DNA of 64,000 nucleotides from Lactiplantibacillus pingfangensis (GTDB lineage: Bacteria; Bacillota; Bacilli; Lactobacillales; Lactobacillaceae), in contig NZ_BJDG01000004.1 in assembly GCF_005404945.1 (NCBI RefSeq), positions 1-64,000 of the forward strand. Direction: 5' to 3'. Below, one piece after another: positions 43,589 through 55,272 of the stretch. The notes under the pieces are model-generated. The model was not told the DNA's origin. It saw only the letters and a list, made by a program, of their open reading frames with translations, and ran no database searches. Position numbers and translations under genes: made by a program. Within the stretch, counting starts at the first letter, position 1, and each line of letters starts with the position of its first letter.

Positions 43589-44479
43589 TCAAAAAATACG
43601 GTGTGCATGTAAGAAATGATATGGTGGATTACTTTGGCTTTCGTAAACATACAAGTGCTCGATTGGGTTTCTTCCCGCATCAGTAAATAATTCACGAAAT
43701 ATTTCACTTATTTGTTTTGGATTGGTATTCAAAAGTAAGTATAGTGATTTGACGCCTTCAGTTTCTGCACGCCGTACTCGTTTAACAATTACGGATACTA
43801 AGTCAGAATTATATCTCCTAACTCGATCTACCTGACCATCTTTCATAGTCTGAAAAACCTCATATCTATGATCAATAACAAAACATGGCAAACTTTTGAG
43901 ATCAGCCGGATAAGTATCTGAAACTACTAGCGAGAGTACAGATGTATCTAATTCTGAGTGACTTGGATTGCTTACAGTAATTGTGACCTCAACATTTGAT
44001 TCGGCAGGCATTACTTCTGGAATTTCAAGTGTCATTTCTCTCCAACCAAAGGTTGACTGATAGTATAAATACTCACAAAATTGCCAAGTTGGAATACTTG
44101 TCGCGCTTCCTGAATGTTGCCGATTAATAAAAGATGCCCACTTAATCATCCAAGAAGGTACAAGAAAATAATGATTAGCTGGAAGAATCTGCTTTTGTCC
44201 TAAAATTTTGTGAATAACAACTAGATACAGTACAAAATAGCACAACAAAATGAATGGAAAATATGCTAACGGGATCTGTCCAATTAGGGACTTCCACTTA
44301 TCACTAATCATCGGAATAAGTTCTCCAATAGCAAATACTATTTTTCTAGGGATACTAATTGTTGTCACATCTGCCAAGATAACTAGCACCGTGATAGGTC
44401 CTATAATTCGTGTAATCAAAAATCTATATTTACGTATTACTCGATTGTCATGATTTTTCAGGATGTTCACCATTGCCAT
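43589..44479 (-). CDS. CBASS candidate effector: two-TM protein with unrecognised soluble domain
   Basis: 296 aa. Two hydrophobic segments (IIGPITVLVILADVTTISI near residues 22-45 and YFPFILLCYFVLYLVV near 72-90) are followed by about 200 soluble, beta-rich residues with no motif I can place. Membrane effectors with two or four TM segments are common in CBASS, where the soluble part binds the cyclic nucleotide and the TM part breaks the membrane. Cap15 is the nearest concept, but it is smaller. GGAAAG precedes ATG 44479, which overlaps the E2 gene by 32 bases. Role inferred from position. Confidence 0.6.
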   Translation of the reverse strand: MAMVNILKNHDNRVIRKYRFLITRIIGPITVLVILADVTTISIPRKIVFAIGELIPMISDKWKSLIGQIPLAYFPFILLCYFVLYLVVIHKILGQKQILPANHYFLVPSWMIKWASFINRQHSGSATSIPTWQFCEYLYYQSTFGWREMTLEIPEVMPAESNVEVTITVSNPSHSELDTSVLSLVVSDTYPADLKSLPCFVIDHRYEVFQTMKDGQVDRVRRYNSDLVSVIVKRVRRAETEGVKSLYLLLNTNPKQISEIFRELFTDAGRNPIEHLYVYESQSNPPYHFLHAHRIF

Positions 44480-44867
44480 ACCACTTTCCAGTAATTAAAT
44501 AAAGTTCATAAAAATAAAGCCACTCCTGTATCCAAGGAATTATGGTTTCCCGGAGATTGTCTCCGAATTTGAATTCTCGCTTTTCTTTTTTATTTCTAAA
44601 CAAGCATAATGATACCGTCCCACTATTCGCATCAGATTGACTGACAAAAATATGAGGGATTCGGTTCAAATCTTGTTCAGGAACGTTGAGGCCGTGTAAT
44701 AAAATTATAATTCTGTTTCTTTTTAAACAAAACTCTATCTTATATTCGCTACTATGCTCATTTGCTCTAAGCAAGCCGTAAACATGAAAACAACCATTTT
44801 GTTTCATTGAATTATATTTATTTGGAAACAGAATTGACAGTTCATAATAATACCTAAACCAAGTCAT
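44448..44867 (-). CDS. CBASS E2-like (ubiquitin-conjugating-type) protein
   Basis: 139 aa from ATG 44867. The C-terminal PWIQEWLYFYE and TGKWYGNGEHP are hallmarks of the prokaryotic E2 family found in short type II CBASS operons. GTVSLCLF places the likely catalytic Cys at residue 88. In studied systems an E2 without E1 attaches to the CD-NTase and primes it. There is no separate E1 (Cap2 fusion) or JAB protease (Cap3) here. The gene overlaps the effector gene and follows the CD-NTase stop by 10 bases; GGGGGG lies about 15 bases upstream, a long spacing. Confidence 0.75.
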   Translation of the reverse strand: MTWFRYYYELSILFPNKYNSMKQNGCFHVYGLLRANEHSSEYKIEFCLKRNRIIILLHGLNVPEQDLNRIPHIFVSQSDANSGTVSLCLFRNKKEKREFKFGDNLRETIIPWIQEWLYFYELYLITGKWYGNGEHPEKS

Positions 44868-44877
44868 ATTGGATTTT

Positions 44878-45978
44878 TTAATCCCCCCAGAACGTATGTG
44901 GCCGAACTTTCTTGTCACTGATTTCCCCCCCGAAAACTCCTTCAGAGCTCAGTGGAACTTGTCCCTGAAGTTGCATAACCGATCGTTTTTTACCCAGATA
45001 TTCAAATACCTCCTGAACACGTGTCTTCCCATAAATGTCAGCTAAGGTAGACTTCCACGGAATCATTTCAGTTTGATTAGTAGTACCAAGATTTGACTCT
45101 ACCACTTGTAGCCATTCAAAAAAAGCATCTTTCCTTTCAGGATGTAATCTCCACTTATCAGTAAAATCTTCATCCTTGTTTGTAGGATTCAGGATATGTG
45201 GAAATCCTTGCGAATCATATTTAATCTGATTTCTCAAGCCATTTGTCACAGCCACAAGCGCTTCAGAAAGATCATCTTGACCAGTATAGGCTTCTGCTGC
45301 CAAGATAGTGATGATCATTGAAATCGGCTTACTCTTATCGTCGCGCTTTTCAAACATCTTATTTCGATGATATTTGAGTAGCTGAACAACCTCTTGAAGG
45401 ATTGTATACTCATGATATTCTTCTGGCGTTTCAACTTCGTCACTAAAACGATTACTCACAATATCCGAATATTGGTAAACATCCTGTCCCTTTTGTGCAA
45501 ACCACTTTTTAAATTTGAACGGACTACTTTGTCGAAACCCATAGTTCTGGATACTAAGGCGATTTGTTATTAAAACATCTGAATACTGGCTATCAGTTGC
45601 TGGAACCACGTCTACATGTGAATTGAAATACTTAATCGTCCAAGCACGATTTTTCTCTGGCTGCAATTTTGACGCATACGCATCGCTGGTTTTAAGAATA
45701 TTCCCAATTAAATGTTTTATTTTCTTTGGCGATGATTCACCATGAACAATGGCAACCAAATCAATATCAAAATCATCATCGGAGCCGTTAATTGGTTTGA
45801 TAGCAGTCCCAAGATTGTACGATCCTTGTGGTTTGATATCCACAGCATTCGACACCCTATTGTCACTTGAAATCAAGTTTCCTAACGCAGTATATTCACG
45901 TACGACCGTTTCTTTCGCCGTATCAGACAATACAATTTTTTGGCAAATCTGCTCTAAAATATAAGAAGTATCTTTCAT
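44878..45978 (-). CDS. CD-NTase (cGAS/DncV-like nucleotidyltransferase), CBASS
   Basis: 366 aa. QGSYNLGTAIKP carries the GS motif (52-53), DDDFDIDLV the two metal-binding Asp (71, 73), and HVDVVPA the third (123). A helical C-terminal half follows. The extreme C-terminus is PHTFWGD, which in E2-type CBASS would be the conjugation site region. On phage infection it would make a cyclic oligonucleotide to activate the effector; the nucleotide product cannot be told. GGAGG precedes ATG 45978. First gene of the operon. Confidence 0.85.
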   Translation of the reverse strand: MKDTSYILEQICQKIVLSDTAKETVVREYTALGNLISSDNRVSNAVDIKPQGSYNLGTAIKPINGSDDDFDIDLVAIVHGESSPKKIKHLIGNILKTSDAYASKLQPEKNRAWTIKYFNSHVDVVPATDSQYSDVLITNRLSIQNYGFRQSSPFKFKKWFAQKGQDVYQYSDIVSNRFSDEVETPEEYHEYTILQEVVQLLKYHRNKMFEKRDDKSKPISMIITILAAEAYTGQDDLSEALVAVTNGLRNQIKYDSQGFPHILNPTNKDEDFTDKWRLHPERKDAFFEWLQVVESNLGTTNQTEMIPWKSTLADIYGKTRVQEVFEYLGKKRSVMQLQGQVPLSSEGVFGGEISDKKVRPHTFWGD

Positions 45979-46889: not shown

Positions 46890-47879
46890 TTAAAAATTAC
46901 TCTTCAAACTCCCAACATTCTTAATCACAACCGAAGTACTGCCATCTGGATTCGTCTCAAATTCAATGGCATCCCGATTTTTCAACAAGCTAATCGGCAC
47001 ATTGATTTCAATACCGTTATCCAGCTTAATCTTTTGACGCTCGTACTTCTTTTCAAAATAGTTAGCGTTTGGCACGGCAACCACTGATTCAATGGCCTTC
47101 TTGGCTAATTCATCTTTAAATTCTGCCTTGGCTTCTTCTTTCTTATCAAACACCATGTTCGCAATATAGTCATTATCAATAACGCCATCCGTCTCAAGGC
47201 TATCATGTATCGCCTGCTGCGTTTTCGATGTGACCGCGAAGTCGTCTTCATCATCATACTTCTCAGAAATTTTCTGAATCGACTTCTTGATTTGTTTCAC
47301 GTCATTTGAAACTTTGACCGGTACCGCCGCAACTTGTAGAAAATTCTTGGACATCAGCCATTTCCCACTAGCACCGGTATATGATTGTTCACGTAACTGA
47401 ACTTTATCGGCATCAATCAGGATCATGTTTTTGACTCCCTGCCCAGGCGACGGCAAAATGCTGTTATTTTGAACGATATTATTAACCAGCACGTCTTCGT
47501 CATACTCCACGTTATGGATGTAGCGTTGCGTGTAATCTAACTTAGCAATACCAATCACTTGGCTTAAGTCATCTAGTTCGACATTAAAGAATAATAGATC
47601 GCCACCAGGAATCTTTTCGTTAACCTTGATACTGTCAAAATAATCCAATGCAAACTTTTCCGTCAGCTGTTGAAAATCACCGCGACTATTCCAGAACTGT
47701 TCAAGCATGGAAATCCGAGATAACTCTAGCTCAACATATTCACTTTTTTCAAATTTATCAATGGCCTTTTCAACGTACTTGGTAATTCCCAAGTTGTCCT
47801 TAGCAATCTCTTTTTGAGACAGAACAACATTACCGGAGTCCTTATCTAGGATATGGTCAATTACATTTAAAATTCTCAT
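46890..47879 (-). CDS. Nucleoid-associated protein, NdpA/YejK (NA37) family
   Basis: 329 aa. NIVQNNSILPSPGQGVKNM in the middle and VVAVPNANYFEKKYERQKI near the C-terminus are family signatures. These proteins bind the nucleoid in Gram-negatives; in Firmicutes they are frequently found in mobile or defence islands, with unknown function. AAAGGAACCC precedes the ATG. It lies downstream of the methyltransferase pair, now separated from it by the group II intron. Confidence 0.75.
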   Translation of the reverse strand: MRILNVIDHILDKDSGNVVLSQKEIAKDNLGITKYVEKAIDKFEKSEYVELELSRISMLEQFWNSRGDFQQLTEKFALDYFDSIKVNEKIPGGDLLFFNVELDDLSQVIGIAKLDYTQRYIHNVEYDEDVLVNNIVQNNSILPSPGQGVKNMILIDADKVQLREQSYTGASGKWLMSKNFLQVAAVPVKVSNDVKQIKKSIQKISEKYDDEDDFAVTSKTQQAIHDSLETDGVIDNDYIANMVFDKKEEAKAEFKDELAKKAIESVVAVPNANYFEKKYERQKIKLDNGIEINVPISLLKNRDAIEFETNPDGSTSVVIKNVGSLKSNF

Positions 47880-48020: not shown

Positions 48021-48110
48021 CTACATTGATTCATCATCACATCTTAAATTTCACACATCAATCAGAATCGAGTAGGAGGTAATTGATTATTTCAATTACC
48101 GACCTCTCAC

Positions 48111-48143
48111 ACCACCGTACGTACGGATCCGTATACGGCGGTT
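48111..48143 (-). ncRNA. Group II intron domain V
   Basis: The 33-nt hairpin ACCGCCGTATACGGATCC followed by GTACGTACGGTGGT is the catalytic domain V of the intron ribozyme on the minus strand. Confidence 0.75.
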
Positions 48144-48150
48144 CAATAAC

Positions 48151-49515
48151 TTAAGTATTCTGAATAAGCTGGAGCGTTTTGGACAGATTCATCAGTCCAA
48201 GGCGTTCTAGCTTTTCATTTGTATAGGTATAACACATCGTTTTACTATGAGCAGTTCGCCAGTATCCCTTGCGGGTATTGGCATTGGTTTTGGCTTGTTC
48301 TGGGGTCATTTCCAGCTTTATTAGTTGCCGATACCGAGTTCTCAACTTCTTCCAGCGTTTCCAAATCAATTGTCTAATTCGACTTCTTAGCCATTGGTCT
48401 AATTGCTGGACAAACTTTTTCATCTTTCCGATACCGTAATATTGTAGCCACCCTTGCATTTTCTGACTGATTTCCTTCATTAGCTGTTGCCAACTGATGC
48501 CACGGCTTCGACCTGTCATTTGTTTAAGGGACTGTTTAACACGTTTCTTGGCTACTTGATGTGGCCTTGGATATGCGCCGTTGCGGTCTACTCCAAGTGT
48601 AAATCCTAGAAATTTTAGTTTCAGCGGCGAGCCGACCGTTGTTTCCTTTTGGTTGACTGTCACTTTTAGCTTATTCTCTAGGAACTTCGTCACATTTTGA
48701 AGAACCCGCTCGCCAGCCCGTTTGCTTTTGACGTAAATATTACAATCATCGGCATAGCGCACAAATGAATGGCCACGACTGGTCAACAATTTATCCAATT
48801 CATTTAGATAAATATTGGCCAGTAGCGGAGAAAGGTTACCACCTTGCGGGGTACCTTTCGTAGTTTTTTTAAACAGTCCACCATTTAGGACACCACTCGT
48901 CAAAAACTGACGGATTAGATGTAATAGCCACGGATCTTGGACTTGCTGTTCAATGAAGTTCATCAGTAGGTCATGGTTGACCATACCAAAGTAGGCCTTC
49001 AAGTCTAGGTCTACCACATAATGGTACCCTTGATTATAAAGACTCGTGACCTTTTTGATGGCGTCGTGTGCCCCTCGATTTGGTCGAAAGCCATAGCTAT
49101 TATCAGAAAATACACGCTCATAGATTGGTGATAATACTTGAACCACCGCCTGTTGTCGGTCTACTACTGTTGGCACACCTAGCTTTCTGGTCGAACCATC
49201 TGGCTTAGGAATTTCAACACGCTTGACCGGTTTCGGACGGTAAGTTCCGTTTCTTAAACTCGTTAAGAGTTTATCTCGGTTCTCATAGAGGTATTCAGAC
49301 AACTGTTCAACGGTCATACCATCAATTCCAGCTGCTCCTTTATTACTTTTAGCTCGCTTAAAAGCGAGGTTCAAGTTACCTCGTGCAAGAACCAAGTCTA
49401 CAAATTGAATACCATTCTGCACCGTACTTTCACCGCCAACAATGCTATGCGCCTCAAGATAGGATTTGCCTTCCAGACGATCGTCAGCTTGTTCTGTTTT
49501 CTGCAATCTTTGCAT
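48151..49515 (-). CDS. ltrA: Group II intron reverse transcriptase/maturase
   Basis: 454 aa. NKGAAGIDGMTVEQL and PKPDGSTRKLGVPTVVDR are RT blocks 0-2, SYGFRPNRGAHDAI block 3, GTPQGGNLSPLLANIYL block 4 and YADD in FVRYADDCNIY the catalytic site. A maturase X domain follows (LMKEISQKMQGWLQYYG). No HNH endonuclease is present, as expected for bacterial class C. The ATG at 49515 follows GGAGGTG; a GTG three codons upstream overlaps it. It splices and mobilises the intron. Confidence 0.9.
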   Translation of the reverse strand: MQRLQKTEQADDRLEGKSYLEAHSIVGGESTVQNGIQFVDLVLARGNLNLAFKRAKSNKGAAGIDGMTVEQLSEYLYENRDKLLTSLRNGTYRPKPVKRVEIPKPDGSTRKLGVPTVVDRQQAVVQVLSPIYERVFSDNSYGFRPNRGAHDAIKKVTSLYNQGYHYVVDLDLKAYFGMVNHDLLMNFIEQQVQDPWLLHLIRQFLTSGVLNGGLFKKTTKGTPQGGNLSPLLANIYLNELDKLLTSRGHSFVRYADDCNIYVKSKRAGERVLQNVTKFLENKLKVTVNQKETTVGSPLKLKFLGFTLGVDRNGAYPRPHQVAKKRVKQSLKQMTGRSRGISWQQLMKEISQKMQGWLQYYGIGKMKKFVQQLDQWLRSRIRQLIWKRWKKLRTRYRQLIKLEMTPEQAKTNANTRKGYWRTAHSKTMCYTYTNEKLERLGLMNLSKTLQLIQNT

Positions 49516-49954
49516 TGTCGACACCTCCAGTATCAGTGAAAATTATTATTGTTCGGTCCTTCGTTCGCCGTTTGGCGGACTACTATGACTCGGCTGACTC
49601 CTGAAATACTCAATTAACCATTACTGGCTAGGTTGTTCCTGTACACCATATCGGCGTTCTAGTCGGAAACTTGTAAATCAGGCCTCCCCGGGTAAGAATG
49701 ATAGCTTTCGTACCATGCAACTGTTGGCTTTACTCTAATCATCTTCGAGTAGTATTGGACTTCGATTTGTTTAGCAACCTTATCCAGATGGTTCTAGCCT
49801 TATAGCCACTTCTTGTTCATCAGTTCGGTACTTTGCTTTAGGCTTCCTTCAGATTCCGTCTCACGGCGGACACCCTTGCCCTCAACTCGTGGTTCCGACT
49901 ACTACGGCCCACAGCGGACTTACACCGCCTAGTTATCACCCATGCCGGGCGCAC

Positions 49955-49990
49955 TAAAGAAAAGCGCCGGTTTCGAAAACCGGCGCTCAT
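49955..49990 (-). terminator. Intrinsic terminator that served as the intron insertion site
   Basis: AGCGCCGGTTT (49963-49973) pairs perfectly with AAACCGGCGCT (49977-49987). On the minus strand the tail TTTTCTTTA ends exactly at the intron 5' boundary. It terminates the methyltransferase operon. Confidence 0.85.
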
Positions 49991-50155: not shown

Positions 50156-50872
50156 TTAATCCGTGACTTCCTCCATCTCTTCCTTGTAAATATCGACCAA
50201 TTTGCACGCCTTGAACCGTTTCTTTGGTTCTTCATCAACCTCATCATCAAATCCAAACAGATCCAACTGTTCCACCTTTCGGCTTGGTACCGATTCATCT
50301 AATGGCCCTTTATCATTTATAATAGCGTCCAATGTGTATTCTATTCGCTGCACCTTTTGTACGCCATTCCTAACCGGTAACAATTTCCATTCGCTAAAAA
50401 TTATCGATCTGCCATCTTTGGTAGCCTTTTTTAATGCATCCCCTTGCCGCATGTTTGCCTCAATGATTGTCATGGCACTACTAGTCACCTTGGGATTTTT
50501 CTTGCCACTCCATTTCTGAATAGCTTGAAAGTAATGATGACTAAAAATATTGTACATACGCATCACTAGAACTTTGACATTATCCTCTAAAAGCTCAATA
50601 CCATACAGCGATGAAAGAACAATTTCCGCATTTGCTTCATATGACTTTAGGTCTGTGCTAAGCTTATTTGCCAAGATCAACTTTCTTCTCAACAACTCAG
50701 TTAAAAACGCCCCTTCTCCAGCAGCCGGTTCCATGAATGTGGTAGATAAGGAATTCAAGGATTCGACTAGCTCCGGCTGATTGAGCATTTGATTTACAAT
50801 TCGTTTAGGGGTGAAAACCTCACCATGCTCCTTGACTCGTTTATTTGATTTTATGAGGTTTTCGTCAGCCAT
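50156..50872 (-). CDS. N-6 adenine methyltransferase-like protein, SAM-motif only
   Basis: 238 aa. HGEVFTPKRIVNQML and FMEPAAGEGAFLTELL (SAM-binding motif I) are clear; YGIELLEDNVKVLVMRM follows. The catalytic NPPY/DPPY motif is absent; IIFSEWKLLPVRNG stands where related restriction subunits have a similar block. By itself it may not be a full enzyme. It starts at the stop of the large helicase-methyltransferase (TAATG overlap, AGAGGAG upstream), so the two are made together and probably act in one complex. Confidence 0.7.
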   Translation of the reverse strand: MADENLIKSNKRVKEHGEVFTPKRIVNQMLNQPELVESLNSLSTTFMEPAAGEGAFLTELLRRKLILANKLSTDLKSYEANAEIVLSSLYGIELLEDNVKVLVMRMYNIFSHHYFQAIQKWSGKKNPKVTSSAMTIIEANMRQGDALKKATKDGRSIIFSEWKLLPVRNGVQKVQRIEYTLDAIINDKGPLDESVPSRKVEQLDLFGFDDEVDEEPKKRFKACKLVDIYKEEMEEVTD

Positions 50873-53800
50873 TAGTTCATCTCCTCTACATGGGTATTAA
50901 TAAACTGGACCTCATCGTCACTTAATTCATACTTTGCAAACAATTGATTGTCTATATCACTAATAGGAGCTTTCCAGTCAATATCAGAGTTCTGCGCAAA
51001 ATTCTGTACAGGTATTTCACGATACGTTGATATTGGTCCGTTTTGCGTAACCTTCCATATTCCCAACATGGTCCTTGCAAATTTTGTTTTCAGATATTTT
51101 TCAGCTGATTCTGCTTCAAGCCTAGTATCGAATGCTCCAATGCTAATAAACGTTTCAGTATGTCCAACGCCAGGTTCGGCAATATACATATCACTTAAGG
51201 GCTCCCCAAATTCACCACTACCAATAGCACTTGCCAGAAAGACATTGTACTTATCTAACCCCAGACGGTCAGTTACATAATCCCGCCGAATCCATTCTTC
51301 TATTCTATCGTCTTTTGGCTTGCCAAGTATGCGAATATACTGATTTCCGTCATCAGGCTTGTTCTCATAAAATACTTCAGGAAGCAATTTCATTATATTT
51401 GATGACATATCATATTTATGACCACTACTTAATCGTTCAACAGCATCCGGAAAGTCTTGATGCAGCTTATCAGTTAATCTGTAAATAGTTCGAGAAAAGC
51501 CAATACTATTCAAAGTATCACTTCGTTTAGATCGAACCTTATCCAAAATGGGACGTAACTCGTCAAACTGCGTAAATGTGCCAATTTTACCAAATTTTTT
51601 TGTGGTATCGCGTAAAGTAATTGCAACTCCACCTTTTATGCTAGTTTTCGGGAAAATATTTCCACTATGTTTTTCGAACATAACCACTCGTAAATGTGGA
51701 TCGTTTAACATCTTCTCATTCCAGATTGAAGACGTATCCCCAGCCTTAAATAGAAATCGAGCAGGCGTAATCATTACTGACTTTTCTGAAAGTTGATATG
51801 ACAATTCCATGAAATACTGATAAATTGATTTTTTACTTTTGCTATCACCACGTTCTGTTTCCTGGTATGGTGGGTTACCAATAACCACATCAAATTTCAT
51901 TTGATTAGTAATCCTTTCTTTGAATGCATCAAGCACGTGCTGAACGGTTTCATCATTTGAATTTTTGGCCTTCTCAACAACGCCATCAACATATACAACA
52001 TTTGTGCCGAATTCGTGGTATCCGCACAAAGTACGGTTTGTAATGCGCTTGGCCATTGGAGTTTTAGCAATGGCGAAGATGTTTTTAGCCAAGATATTTC
52101 GCCATATTTCGTCCTCATCTTTGGCAGTAAATCTGCCACCAGTACGTTCGTTCAGCCGTGCCTGTTCTTGATAGTACAACGAGGTAGCTACATATAGCGG
52201 ATAAAGCCCAGTCTTAGAATTGATTTCAAGTATTCGAGTATCTCGTTTAAAAATATCTTTCGTCATTTCAGTATCAACCCAGTGCGTAGCATCGACGCCG
52301 TCTATTGAGGTGTAATTATACGTTGGGTCAAAATAGGAATACCCTCCAATAGTCTTGCCTAATTGCATGTTCACAACACGCCATGGAGTAAGCACAGTTT
52401 CTTTATCTGGGTTCTTAAAGGTTCCGAATAGTTCACCAATATCTGCAGTGCGCTTCAACGGCTCCAGGCGATCCATTCGCTTAACTCGCTGTCGAATAAT
52501 TCGACCGGCCTCAATGAAAATATTCGCATCATAATACTTGGAAAACTTCTTGAACTTTGCCTTGTCCACACCCTTTGGCATGAATTCCGCCCATGATTCA
52601 GCATCAACTTTGTCGACAAAAGTTTGGATATCAATATTCTTTTCGATTGGAATATCCATTCCATAAATCATCATCGGGATACGAATAGAAATGGACCGTA
52701 AGATTGAAATCATTGTCTTACGTTGCTTCTTGAGAGCACGTTCCTTTTCCAGAAGTTCTTGTTCCTTAGGAGTTAAATCCTTTTTATTCTTTTTCTTTGT
52801 CTTTTCGGCTTTGTTATACTCTTCATCGGTAAGTCCCTGATGATTAACGTTAATTGTGTTGGGCTTCTTTTGGGCCTTGGTAGTCCCAATTTCTGCCTTA
52901 AGATCGTTAAAGTCCTTAAGGTCGGCCTCATCCATTTTCAACAATTCATCATTGTACAGCGAATCATCATCGAACCCGGTACGAACCGCCCTTTCAGCAT
53001 ACACTTTCTTCAGCTGGGTCATCAAACTATCAACATTATACAGCGCCATTCCCTGATCCTGTTCACCAATAATTGGAAGGAAGTTAAGCAGCTCTCCCAT
53101 TTTCTCCTTTTGGTCGTCGGTTTGCAGTTTACCCGCACCAGTATTCAATTGAGACGACGCAGCCATAACATTCAAAGCACGATCAGGGGCAAAATCAAAG
53201 ATATAGCAATCCGTCTTCATCCCCAATTCCTTATCTGCATATGGCGTCTGAGCCCGGAATGCAGCCTGTAGGTATTGCATCGCACTGTTGGTATTGGACA
53301 GAAACATAACGCCAGTCCATTGGGGAATATTAACCCCGGTTGTCAATTTACGCACAGTCAAGGTAATGGTCTTGGTTTGCGCTGGGTGCTTAGTGATAGC
53401 GGCACGAACGCGTTCCAAGTCTCCCTCACTAGCACCGTCTTCTTTGCCATCATCAACCACGTTAACGATGGTGTAGCCCATACCAAATACGGGGTGCTTT
53501 TCCATCAGTGTCTTTAGTGCCTTAGCTGAATCAACAGATGGCAACAACCACAATGTGTGTCGCAATTCATTTCTAAATTGCTCAGTTGAGTACGGGAAGT
53601 TAGTGTCTTTAGATGGTGACGTAATGTTGTTCAAAAACTGGTTGACTTTTGTTTCGTATACGAAGCGGCCTTTATCATCCACCTTGAAAAATTCGTGGAA
53701 ATTGAACGCCTTTTGGTCAAAATCAAGGAACCGATTATCTTCAAACTTATCCTTCATTTCAAACGTGAACATGGAGACCTTCGGCAATACAGCATAAGGA

Positions 53801-55272
53801 TTTACTTCATCGGGATTCTCAACGTTCCAACGTGCTTTGGCTTGTTGTTCCATCGTGTAGTCCCAAGTAAAAACTTGATCAGGTTCGTACTCGTCAATCA
53901 AGTTGAACGGAGTTCCCGAAAGTTCGAGGACACGAGTTGTATCCTTCACCACGCCCTTAATCACGGACTGCGCTAAACCTGTCTGCGTTCCTTCGTGGGC
54001 TTCATCAATAATAACTAGATTCCAATTCAATTTGGCAATGAGCTCATTTTTGTCTCCGGCCTTGCCCCCGGCCCATTCGGAACCACGCAGATCCTGCATG
54101 CTAGCAAAGTAAAGGAACTTGCCACCATCATCAACTAATTGTTCCAAAGAAGCGTCATGCTTTTGTTTCGAACCATAGCGGTATCCAGGCATACTTAACT
54201 TATCGAAATCTTCAAACCAGCTATCACGAACAACGGGGCGGTGTGTCATGATAAGCACACGTTCGTATTGCTGGTTCTTGATTAGCTGCAAGGCGCTAAG
54301 GGTCTTACCAAAACGCATTTTGGCATTCCAAAGCATCTTCTTGTCGTCATTCTTTTTCGTCTTGAAGACCCTTTCAGTCTTGTCGATAGCGATTTGTTGT
54401 TCAGGACGTAGTTTAATCTTTGATTCGACAACAGTTGGTGCGTTTATAAACGATTTTCCCGCCCGAACCGCCGCAATGGCATTCTTAACGGTATCAACAT
54501 CCGTAACATACCATTCACGAGCAGCTCCTTCGACCAACTTAGAATCCTTCTTGATGTTTGAGTTATCAAGAACATCATGGACTGCGTGGTCGTCAAACCA
54601 TTCACCATGCCCATTGACTTCCCGATAAGCTGCCTCGGTCCATTCAATATTTGGTTTAACGCCCATCGTTCCAGCGTACGACTTGATACGCTTTAACGCT
54701 GCAGTATGTAGAAATTGGCTGTTTGGCGTAGTGTCAACAATTTCACCATGATACGTGGCTTTGCCAATTTTTTGCCGTCCGGCATACTGTGGCCACTGTT
54801 CAAGATCATCCGCCGTAAATGAGTATACCAATGTCTTAGCTGATGTAGTGTATAAGACAGGTTCCTTGAAGCTGGAAACGCCTTGTCGGAAACCACAGTA
54901 AGAGTACACAAACCAATACATTAGTTTGTGCAAATTAAACAGTGCTTCATATGCGTCATCTTTGGACACTTGAGCCTTCGCGTCATGTAAAACCTTGTTA
55001 CCCTTGCGCCGAATACCATCCAATATGTCCATTACGTCCTGCGCAACATAACCATTTTGCCGAATTAAGGAGAGCGCCTCGAAAAAGCTCCCTGAAAAAT
55101 CATGATTACGTTTCTTTAGAACGTAGCGGGCCACACCCTCGGGTACGTTACGCACAATTCCTGGTACCTGCTGATACTTTTGATTCGCGTACATAAGTTC
55201 AGCTGTTTCAAGTGGTCCAACAAATTGTTCAGCATCCTCAATTTCTTTTAAAAATTCAAAATTACTACTCAT
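50872..55272 (-). CDS. Helicase-methyltransferase fusion, restriction/defence type
   Basis: 1466 aa. N-terminal DUF4145-like helical region (ILDGIRRKGNKVLHDA, about 84-99); a possible GIY-YIG-like nuclease stretch (KIGKATYHG about 168-176, EWFDDHAVHDVL and REWYVTDVDTVKNAI up to 267), which is uncertain; SF2 helicase with AKMRFGKT (317-324), DEAH (423-426), ELSGTPFN and YLQAAFRAQTP; then an N6-adenine methyltransferase with TPWRVVNMQL (962-971), ILEINSKTGLYPL (1014-1026) and NPPYQ (1133-1137). The C-terminal 300 residues are probably target recognition. The layout recalls single-chain type I-like restriction enzymes. GGGGGAG precedes the ATG. Confidence 0.75.
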   Translation of the reverse strand: MSSNFEFLKEIEDAEQFVGPLETAELMYANQKYQQVPGIVRNVPEGVARYVLKKRNHDFSGSFFEALSLIRQNGYVAQDVMDILDGIRRKGNKVLHDAKAQVSKDDAYEALFNLHKLMYWFVYSYCGFRQGVSSFKEPVLYTTSAKTLVYSFTADDLEQWPQYAGRQKIGKATYHGEIVDTTPNSQFLHTAALKRIKSYAGTMGVKPNIEWTEAAYREVNGHGEWFDDHAVHDVLDNSNIKKDSKLVEGAAREWYVTDVDTVKNAIAAVRAGKSFINAPTVVESKIKLRPEQQIAIDKTERVFKTKKNDDKKMLWNAKMRFGKTLSALQLIKNQQYERVLIMTHRPVVRDSWFEDFDKLSMPGYRYGSKQKHDASLEQLVDDGGKFLYFASMQDLRGSEWAGGKAGDKNELIAKLNWNLVIIDEAHEGTQTGLAQSVIKGVVKDTTRVLELSGTPFNLIDEYEPDQVFTWDYTMEQQAKARWNVENPDEVNPYAVLPKVSMFTFEMKDKFEDNRFLDFDQKAFNFHEFFKVDDKGRFVYETKVNQFLNNITSPSKDTNFPYSTEQFRNELRHTLWLLPSVDSAKALKTLMEKHPVFGMGYTIVNVVDDGKEDGASEGDLERVRAAITKHPAQTKTITLTVRKLTTGVNIPQWTGVMFLSNTNSAMQYLQAAFRAQTPYADKELGMKTDCYIFDFAPDRALNVMAASSQLNTGAGKLQTDDQKEKMGELLNFLPIIGEQDQGMALYNVDSLMTQLKKVYAERAVRTGFDDDSLYNDELLKMDEADLKDFNDLKAEIGTTKAQKKPNTINVNHQGLTDEEYNKAEKTKKKNKKDLTPKEQELLEKERALKKQRKTMISILRSISIRIPMMIYGMDIPIEKNIDIQTFVDKVDAESWAEFMPKGVDKAKFKKFSKYYDANIFIEAGRIIRQRVKRMDRLEPLKRTADIGELFGTFKNPDKETVLTPWRVVNMQLGKTIGGYSYFDPTYNYTSIDGVDATHWVDTEMTKDIFKRDTRILEINSKTGLYPLYVATSLYYQEQARLNERTGGRFTAKDEDEIWRNILAKNIFAIAKTPMAKRITNRTLCGYHEFGTNVVYVDGVVEKAKNSNDETVQHVLDAFKERITNQMKFDVVIGNPPYQETERGDSKSKKSIYQYFMELSYQLSEKSVMITPARFLFKAGDTSSIWNEKMLNDPHLRVVMFEKHSGNIFPKTSIKGGVAITLRDTTKKFGKIGTFTQFDELRPILDKVRSKRSDTLNSIGFSRTIYRLTDKLHQDFPDAVERLSSGHKYDMSSNIMKLLPEVFYENKPDDGNQYIRILGKPKDDRIEEWIRRDYVTDRLGLDKYNVFLASAIGSGEFGEPLSDMYIAEPGVGHTETFISIGAFDTRLEAESAEKYLKTKFARTMLGIWKVTQNGPISTYREIPVQNFAQNSDIDWKAPISDIDNQLFAKYELSDDEVQFINTHVEEMN

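What the first reader, a model, noticed from the sequence alone, without database searches (positions are those of the whole stretch)
50156..55272. Split methyltransferase system: motif-I-only protein plus giant helicase-methyltransferase
The large protein has SF2 helicase motifs, an unusual SAM motif (EINSKTGLYPL) and NPPYQ; its 1-base-overlapping partner has a canonical SAM motif (EPAAGEGAF) but no NPPY. Two half-canonical methyltransferases in one operon suggest a heteromeric enzyme not covered by the usual type I/II/III description.
Basis: partly seen in the sequence, partly recalled or inferred. Interest (0 to 1): 0.65.

Follow-up and report, generated by a model that had tools for sequence, protein, structure and literature searches.

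The report
Split adenine methyltransferase in restriction system
A bacterial defence enzyme that marks and cuts DNA appears to keep its cofactor-binding half in a separate small protein, a layout that recurs across many bacteria and their viruses and suggests how one recognition part could serve both marking and cutting.

Summary
Gene 50872-55272(-) encodes 1466 aa: an HsdR-like N-terminus, a GIY-YIG-like nuclease domain, an SF2 helicase, and an m6A methyltransferase with NPPYQ and motif I 'EINSKTG'. Gene 50156-50872(-) encodes 238 aa with motifs X, I, II and III but no motif IV.

The pair is one form of a widespread system. In 94 of 101 relatives the catalytic half (CM) has such a small partner (S). 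S keeps the SAM residues: GxG 75/75, motif II acid 76/76. The N-half in front of CM has Lys/Arg for the first Gly in 85/85 and an acid at motif II in 0/85. Phages encode S plus CM with no other N-half (once, one S with four CM genes); natural S-CM fusions occur in both orders.

Best reading: a split, heteromeric gamma-class m6A methyltransferase inside an ATP-dependent restriction system; S binds SAM, CM reads DNA and catalyses. Further inference: the Lys half is a SAM-dead stand-in used for restriction; it is found with the helicase. Nothing was tested at the bench. AlphaFold folds either N-half with CM, so the pairing in vivo is open. A passing remark on 'split DNA methyltransferases' exists (PMC4335053); REBASE could not be searched.

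The parts
50872..55272 (-). large protein, 1466 aa: HsdR-like N-terminus, GIY-YIG-like nuclease, SF2 helicase, K-T-G methyltransferase N-half, catalytic half with target-recognition region
   Evidence: ORF; Pfam, PADLOC, NCBIfam; full-length homologues
54853..55272 (-). HsdR-like N-terminal region, residues 1-140
   Evidence: NCBIfam PRK11448 residues 1-140, E 4e-12; DUF4145 below cut-off
54463..54840 (-). GIY-YIG (T5orf172-like) nuclease domain, residues about 145-270; conserved Y150, K168, G170, R195, D228, H232, E253
   Evidence: alignment of 92 relatives; relatives reach Pfam T5orf172 above its cut-off; no Pfam hit for the window protein itself
52933..54420 (-). SF2 helicase core, residues about 285-780 (AKMRFGKT, DEAH, SGT)
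   Evidence: Pfam ResIII; motif positions
51895..52521 (-). second methyltransferase N-half (K-[ST]-G half), residues about 918-1126: motif X VLTPWRVV, motif I EINSKTG, motif II without acid (FAIAKT)
   Evidence: conservation over 85 sequences; predicted fold
52195..52227 (-). motif I variant EINSKTGLYPL, residues 1016-1026; Lys1020 replaces the first Gly
   Evidence: K 84/85, R 1/85
50875..51894 (-). catalytic half CM (motif IV onward) with target-recognition region, residues 1127-1466
   Evidence: same boundaries as free 339-351 aa proteins in relatives; PADLOC MTase_II from residue 1124
51862..51879 (-). motif IV GNPPYQ, residues 1132-1137
50156..50872 (-). small protein S, 238 aa: motifs X, I, II, III; no motif IV
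   Evidence: alignment A2
50705..50731 (-). canonical SAM motif I EPAAGEGAF, residues 48-56
50249..50272 (-). EQLDLFGF in the acidic tail of S, a candidate beta-clamp-binding motif
   Evidence: QxxLF in 23 of 29 related S tails against 0.3 expected in shuffles
49962..49988 (-). intrinsic terminator closing the two-gene operon
   Evidence: 12-pair stem; one consensus match, not tested

Best explanation
The locus is an ATP-dependent restriction-modification system whose N6-adenine methyltransferase is split between two proteins. The small protein S is the SAM-binding half (motifs X, I, II, III). The C-terminal 340 residues of the large protein (CM) are the catalytic half (motif IV onward) with the target-recognition region. 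S supplies the SAM pocket in trans. The N-half that precedes CM in the large protein is a fixed variant: Lys replaces the first Gly of motif I and the motif II acid is gone, so it probably does not hold SAM in the usual way. The N-terminal GIY-YIG-like domain and the SF2 helicase would translocate on and cut unmodified DNA. Shown here: the parts, their conservation, the co-occurrence, the natural fusions and fissions, and the predicted folds. Inferred: that S and CM form the active site, that the K-T-G half is SAM-dead, and all activities.
For: Phage contigs carry S and CM with no other N-half: L234, L217, L242, and L238 with four CM genes and one S. Named phages: P-SSM2 PSSM2_036/037 adjacent and overlapping; PTm1 gp277 (CM) and gp279 (300-aa-type N-half). 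Fusions: M3-CM in seven Lactobacillales loci and others elsewhere, S-CM in L192 and L210, CM-S in Aeh1 and phiAS5; PHROG 11371 independently holds a CM-S chain that matches both L234 proteins. Free CM proteins start at motif IV. 94 of 101 CM loci have an S or M3 partner; most of the other seven are at contig ends. S: GxG 75/75, motif II acid 76/76, motif III D/N 76/76. Lys half: K/R 85/85, motif II acid 0/85; CamA uses acids of motifs I, II and III to bind SAH (PMC8187626). S and methyltransferase genes overlap or lie within 60 bp in 66 of 76 loci; distance correlation r 0.70, permutation maximum 0.20. The S-CM fusion L210 folds as a complete gamma methyltransferase (pLDDT 92.2, pTM 0.89; CamA Z 23.9, rmsd 4.9 over 420). 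Nuclease residues conserved.
Against: The large protein's own Lys half plus CM also folds as a complete gamma methyltransferase (pLDDT 93.6, pTM 0.89; CamA Z 18.6, rmsd 4.9 over 410), so S is not needed for a complete fold. M.TaqI works with motif I AxAxG (PMC8187626), so a changed motif I does not prove loss of SAM binding. Some phage CM proteins keep a GGG motif I of their own (L221). No complex, cofactor or DNA was modelled. Phage loci are more distant and partly metagenomic; loci are not phylogenetically independent.
Confidence: 0.6

Rival explanations
1. The large protein is a complete, self-sufficient type ISP-like enzyme that uses a variant SAM pocket (K-T-G). S is an accessory or allosteric SAM sensor, or a structural subunit, not the SAM donor for catalysis.
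For: Complete predicted fold of the Lys half plus CM, including matches to LlaGI and LlaBIII (Z 16.3 and 16.1). The Lys is invariant, which suggests function rather than decay.
Against: The motif II acid is lost in 85 of 85; in phages S is the only N-half present with CM; natural S-CM and M3-CM fusions exist.
Confidence: 0.22
2. Two alternative complexes share one CM: S with CM is the modification form, and the SAM-dead Lys half, tied to the helicase and nuclease, holds CM for the restriction form. An extension of the best explanation.
For: Lys half and helicase occur together in 131 of 174 loci; 24 have neither, 7 have only the Lys half (all at contig ends), 12 only a helicase; Fisher p 1e-14, and two of the 12 have K-T-G or K-A-G missed by the pattern. 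In split systems the Lys half is the helicase C-terminus and CM is free or fused to the S-like half.
Against: Loci are not independent, so the p-value overstates. Actinobacterial L092, L093 and L166 have S-T-A-G with a helicase, and phage L227 has a T5orf172 helicase with no Lys half. In the commonest form the Lys half is fused to CM, not to the helicase. No structure of either complex.
Confidence: 0.35
3. The methyltransferase parts are inactive relics, as proposed for B. subtilis dnmA-yeeB-yeeC as a restriction system, kept on mobile elements without function.
For: That related-looking cluster showed no phage defence in B. subtilis (PMC9973331).
Against: Both window genes are intact with catalytic residues conserved, across many phyla.
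Confidence: 0.08

Closest known systems
Type ISP enzymes LlaGI and LlaBIII
   Same: one long chain with nuclease, SF2 helicase, gamma m6A methyltransferase and recognition region; fold match of the methyltransferase part (Z 16.3 and 16.1)
   Different: separate small SAM-motif protein; GIY-YIG-like instead of the Mrr-like nuclease (nuclease family of LlaGI from my own knowledge)
DnmA-YeeB-YeeC of Bacillus subtilis (PMC9973331)
   Same: gamma m6A methyltransferase, SF2 helicase and T5orf172 domain in one cluster
   Different: as described there DnmA is a single methyltransferase protein with helicase and T5orf172 in two others; no small partner reported
Split C5 methyltransferases M.AquI and M.EcoHK31I (PMC3404938)
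   Same: one methyltransferase made of two polypeptides, both needed
   Different: cytosine-C5 enzymes cut near motifs IX/X, not between motifs III and IV; no second N-half, no helicase
CamA and M.TaqI (gamma m6A methyltransferases)
   Same: fold and motif order of the predicted models
   Different: single chain, no helicase, nuclease or partner
'Split DNA methyltransferases' mentioned in PMC4335053
   Same: 2 or 3 subunits said to be needed for full activity
   Different: only a passing personal communication; sequences and layout not given, so identity with this system cannot be judged

Membership tests
Gamma-class N6-adenine DNA methyltransferase | motif order X, I, II, III, IV to VIII, then recognition region, with D/N-P-P-Y/F | tested here: met
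   order in the large chain and in the S-CM fusion L210; NPPYQ; best fold matches CamA, M.BseCI, M.TaqI
Gamma-class N6-adenine DNA methyltransferase | complete SAM pocket on the same chain as motif IV | tested here: not met
   Lys half lacks the first Gly in 85/85 and the motif II acid in 85/85; both are on S. SAM binding itself not measured
Gamma-class N6-adenine DNA methyltransferase | transfers methyl to adenine N6 | not testable with these tools
   needs methylome sequencing
Type ISP restriction-modification | nuclease, translocase, methyltransferase and recognition in a single polypeptide | tested here: inconclusive
   all four regions are on the large chain, but a conserved second protein accompanies it; whether it is needed is unknown
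Type IIG (PADLOC REase_MTase_IIG) | sequence match to the model | tested here: met
   PDLC03626 E 7e-42
Type IIG (PADLOC REase_MTase_IIG) | endonuclease and methyltransferase in one chain without ATP-dependent translocase | tested here: not met
   SF2 helicase with Walker A-like and DEAH motifs
GIY-YIG (T5orf172) nuclease | Pfam T5orf172 above cut-off | tested here: inconclusive
   met by relatives, not by the window protein; catalytic-type residues aligned and conserved
DnmA-YeeB-YeeC-type cluster | MmeI-like methyltransferase, SF2 helicase and T5orf172 gene set | not tested
   same domain set from the paper's description; the B. subtilis proteins were not aligned here
Type I restriction-modification | separate HsdR, HsdM, HsdS genes | tested here: not met
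   no HsdS or HsdM gene in the operon; only the first 140 residues resemble HsdR

The most novel reading that the evidence does not exclude
One catalytic and target-recognition half is shared by two interchangeable N-halves: a SAM-competent small subunit that makes the modification enzyme, and a SAM-dead Lys-type half tied to the helicase and nuclease that makes the restriction enzyme. Marking and cutting would then read the same site by construction, and phages would have kept only the marking pair.
Probability: 0.35. Interest if true: 0.85.

Novelty: new variant of a known kind. Interest (0 to 1): 0.62.

Why it matters
If true, a very common class of bacterial genes now listed separately as 'N-6 DNA methylase' or 'restriction endonuclease subunit M' and 'Eco57I methylase' is one heteromeric enzyme, and phage 'hypothetical proteins' in P-SSM2, Aeh1 and related phages gain a testable function. 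It would be a natural m6A methyltransferase cut between the SAM-binding and the catalytic half, and a possible simple answer to how restriction and modification keep the same specificity. It also warns that methylome studies which clone only the NPPY gene could miss the activity.

Tried and rejected
Solved-structure sequence search: nothing for the large protein, only a chance hit (E 0.7) for the small one. Profile comparison of S with the window-type Lys half alone failed (probability 0.8%), while S with the other Lys halves gave 96%; homology of the window-type half rests on position, motif X, the predicted fold and the other Lys halves. The S-versus-M3 comparison shared members and is not used; blastp E-values near 1e-12 in the same call are. 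A fused model of the large C-terminus plus S through the stop codon of L089 was prepared and dropped, because MAFFT placed the S rows on the homologous Lys half. The beta-clamp motif as a universal feature was rejected: QxxLF is common in Firmicute-type S and M3 tails but occurs in only 19 of 88 others. E. coli relatives: none found at DNA level. Type I, simple type IIG and BREX were considered and set aside as above. Paper searches for a description of this system found none; two methylome papers read for 'split' enzymes did not describe it.

Full report
What is there. The large gene (50872-55272, minus) and the small gene (50156-50872, minus) are intact and overlap by one base in TAATG. The large protein has, from its N-terminus, an HsdR-like stretch (1-140; PRK11448 E 4e-12), a GIY-YIG-like domain (about 145-270), an SF2 helicase (ResIII 285-456) and an Eco57I-type methylase with NPPYQ. 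The GIY-YIG-like domain is not found by Pfam in the window protein itself. It aligns with 91 relatives, some of which pass the Pfam T5orf172 cut-off, and it keeps Y150, K168, G170, R195, D228, H232 and E253. The small protein has motifs X, I, II and III and then stops short of motif IV.

The architecture varies in an informative way. Call the small N-half S, its 300-aa relative M3, and the part from motif IV onward CM. In this order of bacteria CM is fused behind the helicase (window type), stands alone as a 339-351 aa protein that begins MKFDVV(I/V)GNPPYQ, or is fused behind M3 in 636-667 aa chains. In each case the helicase or CM chain also carries an N-half with its own motif X and a motif I of the form K-[ST]-G; in the window this is VLTPWRVV and EINSKTG. 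So the system has two N-halves and one catalytic half. A scan of bacterial genomes with CM found the same logic across phyla, most often as S (about 220 aa), a 500-550 aa methyltransferase with the K-S-G half, and a T5orf172-helicase of about 850 aa. Of 101 CM loci, 94 have S or M3 beside or fused to CM; of the other seven, most end at a contig edge and one (L160) has S in a longer ORF.

The two N-halves differ in the residues that hold SAM. In S the GxG is kept in 75 of 75, the motif II acid in 76 of 76 and motif III D/N in 76 of 76. In the other half the first Gly is K or R in 85 of 85 and the motif II position is never acidic (0 of 85). In CamA the acids of motifs I, II and III bind the cofactor (PMC8187626). 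M.TaqI shows that motif I can vary, so this argues for, but does not prove, loss of SAM binding.

Phages show the minimal pair. Contigs L234, L217 and L242 have S and a CM that starts at motif IV, with no other N-half seen nearby; L238 has four such CM genes and one S. Among named phages, P-SSM2 and Tenacibaculum phage PTm1 have the two proteins apart, and Aeromonas phages Aeh1 and phiAS5 have CM and S in one chain in the reverse order. PHROG family 11371, built by others and of unknown function, contains that CM-S chain, and both L234 proteins and the window's small protein match their respective parts of it. L192 and L210 are S-CM fusions without the K-S-G half. Together these make it likely that S and CM can form one methyltransferase.

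Structure predictions do not decide between the N-halves. Window residues 918-1466 (K-T-G half plus CM) fold with pLDDT 93.6 and pTM 0.89; the best solved match is CamA, Z 18.6, rmsd 4.9 over 410. The L210 S-CM fusion folds with pLDDT 92.2 and pTM 0.89 and matches CamA with Z 23.9, rmsd 4.9 over 420. Both are complete gamma methyltransferases with a recognition region. The higher Z for L210 is between different proteins and is only suggestive.

Why keep a SAM-dead half? Over 174 loci the K-S-G half and the helicase are both present in 131 and both absent in 24; 7 have only the K half, all at contig ends, and 12 only a helicase (Fisher p 1e-14). Of the 12, L085 and L098 have K-T-G and K-A-G missed by the pattern, L092, L093 and L166 have S-T-A-G, L091 is truncated, and the others are phage loci, most with weak helicase matches. 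The loci are related, so the p-value overstates. The pattern suggests that the K half belongs to restriction: it may hold CM, and so the recognition region, on the helicase without methylating, while S with CM makes the mark. This is inference.

Context. S and methyltransferase genes overlap or lie within 60 bp in 66 of 76 loci and their distance matrices correlate (r 0.70; permutation maximum 0.20), as expected for genes inherited together. Full-length homologues are on many lactic-acid-bacterial and enterococcal plasmids; three other genomes of the window's genus lack the large gene. Many Firmicute-type S and M3 tails carry QxxLF (23 of 29 and 20 of 28, against 0.3 and 0.2 in shuffles). That resembles the bacterial sliding-clamp motif (my own knowledge), but it is not general in the family.

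Novelty. PADLOC lists the parts under type II and IIG models. Natural split C5 methyltransferases are known (PMC3404938), a methyltransferase-helicase-T5orf172 cluster is known (PMC9973331), and 'split DNA methyltransferases' of 2 or 3 subunits are mentioned as a personal communication (PMC4335053). The paper library gave no account of this system or of the double N-half; REBASE was not available. I rate it a new variant of a known kind.

Noticed in passing
window 43589-45978 (-): Three-gene CBASS-like operon next door: CD-NTase cyclase (44878-45978), E2-like protein (44448-44918) and 2TM effector (43589-44479).
   Followed up: partly
window about 48067-49954 (-): Group II intron with reverse transcriptase (48151-49524) inserted directly after the terminator of the methyltransferase operon, as group IIC introns do.
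   Followed up: partly
window 46890-47879 (-): NA37 nucleoid-associated-like protein between the intron and the CBASS genes; no link to either system tested.
   Followed up: no
L238:6377-11151: Phage contig with four NPPY proteins (269-295 aa, one with NIPF) and a single motif-I protein: possibly one SAM subunit shared by four specificities.
   Followed up: partly
L247:1484-3417 (Klebsiella phage KpV477) and L251:1467-3432 (Shigella phage PSD9): T4-like phages with a GIY-YIG-like plus NPPY/NPPF protein next to an S protein.
   Followed up: no
L248:3170-4417 and L249:3185-4438: Aeh1 and phiAS5: CM-S chain in beta-class-like motif order, annotated hypothetical or 'similar to type III restriction'.
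   Followed up: partly
L113:6889-8565 and about 50 similar methyltransferases: The common 520-aa form has a CxxCGAS...HAYxFIH stretch, likely a zinc site, between the K-S-G motif and motif IV.
   Followed up: no
L060:4029-4943 and relatives: The 300-aa M3 form has motif I EITCGEAPYM, with the second Gly changed to Ala, and a long N-terminal extension.
   Followed up: no
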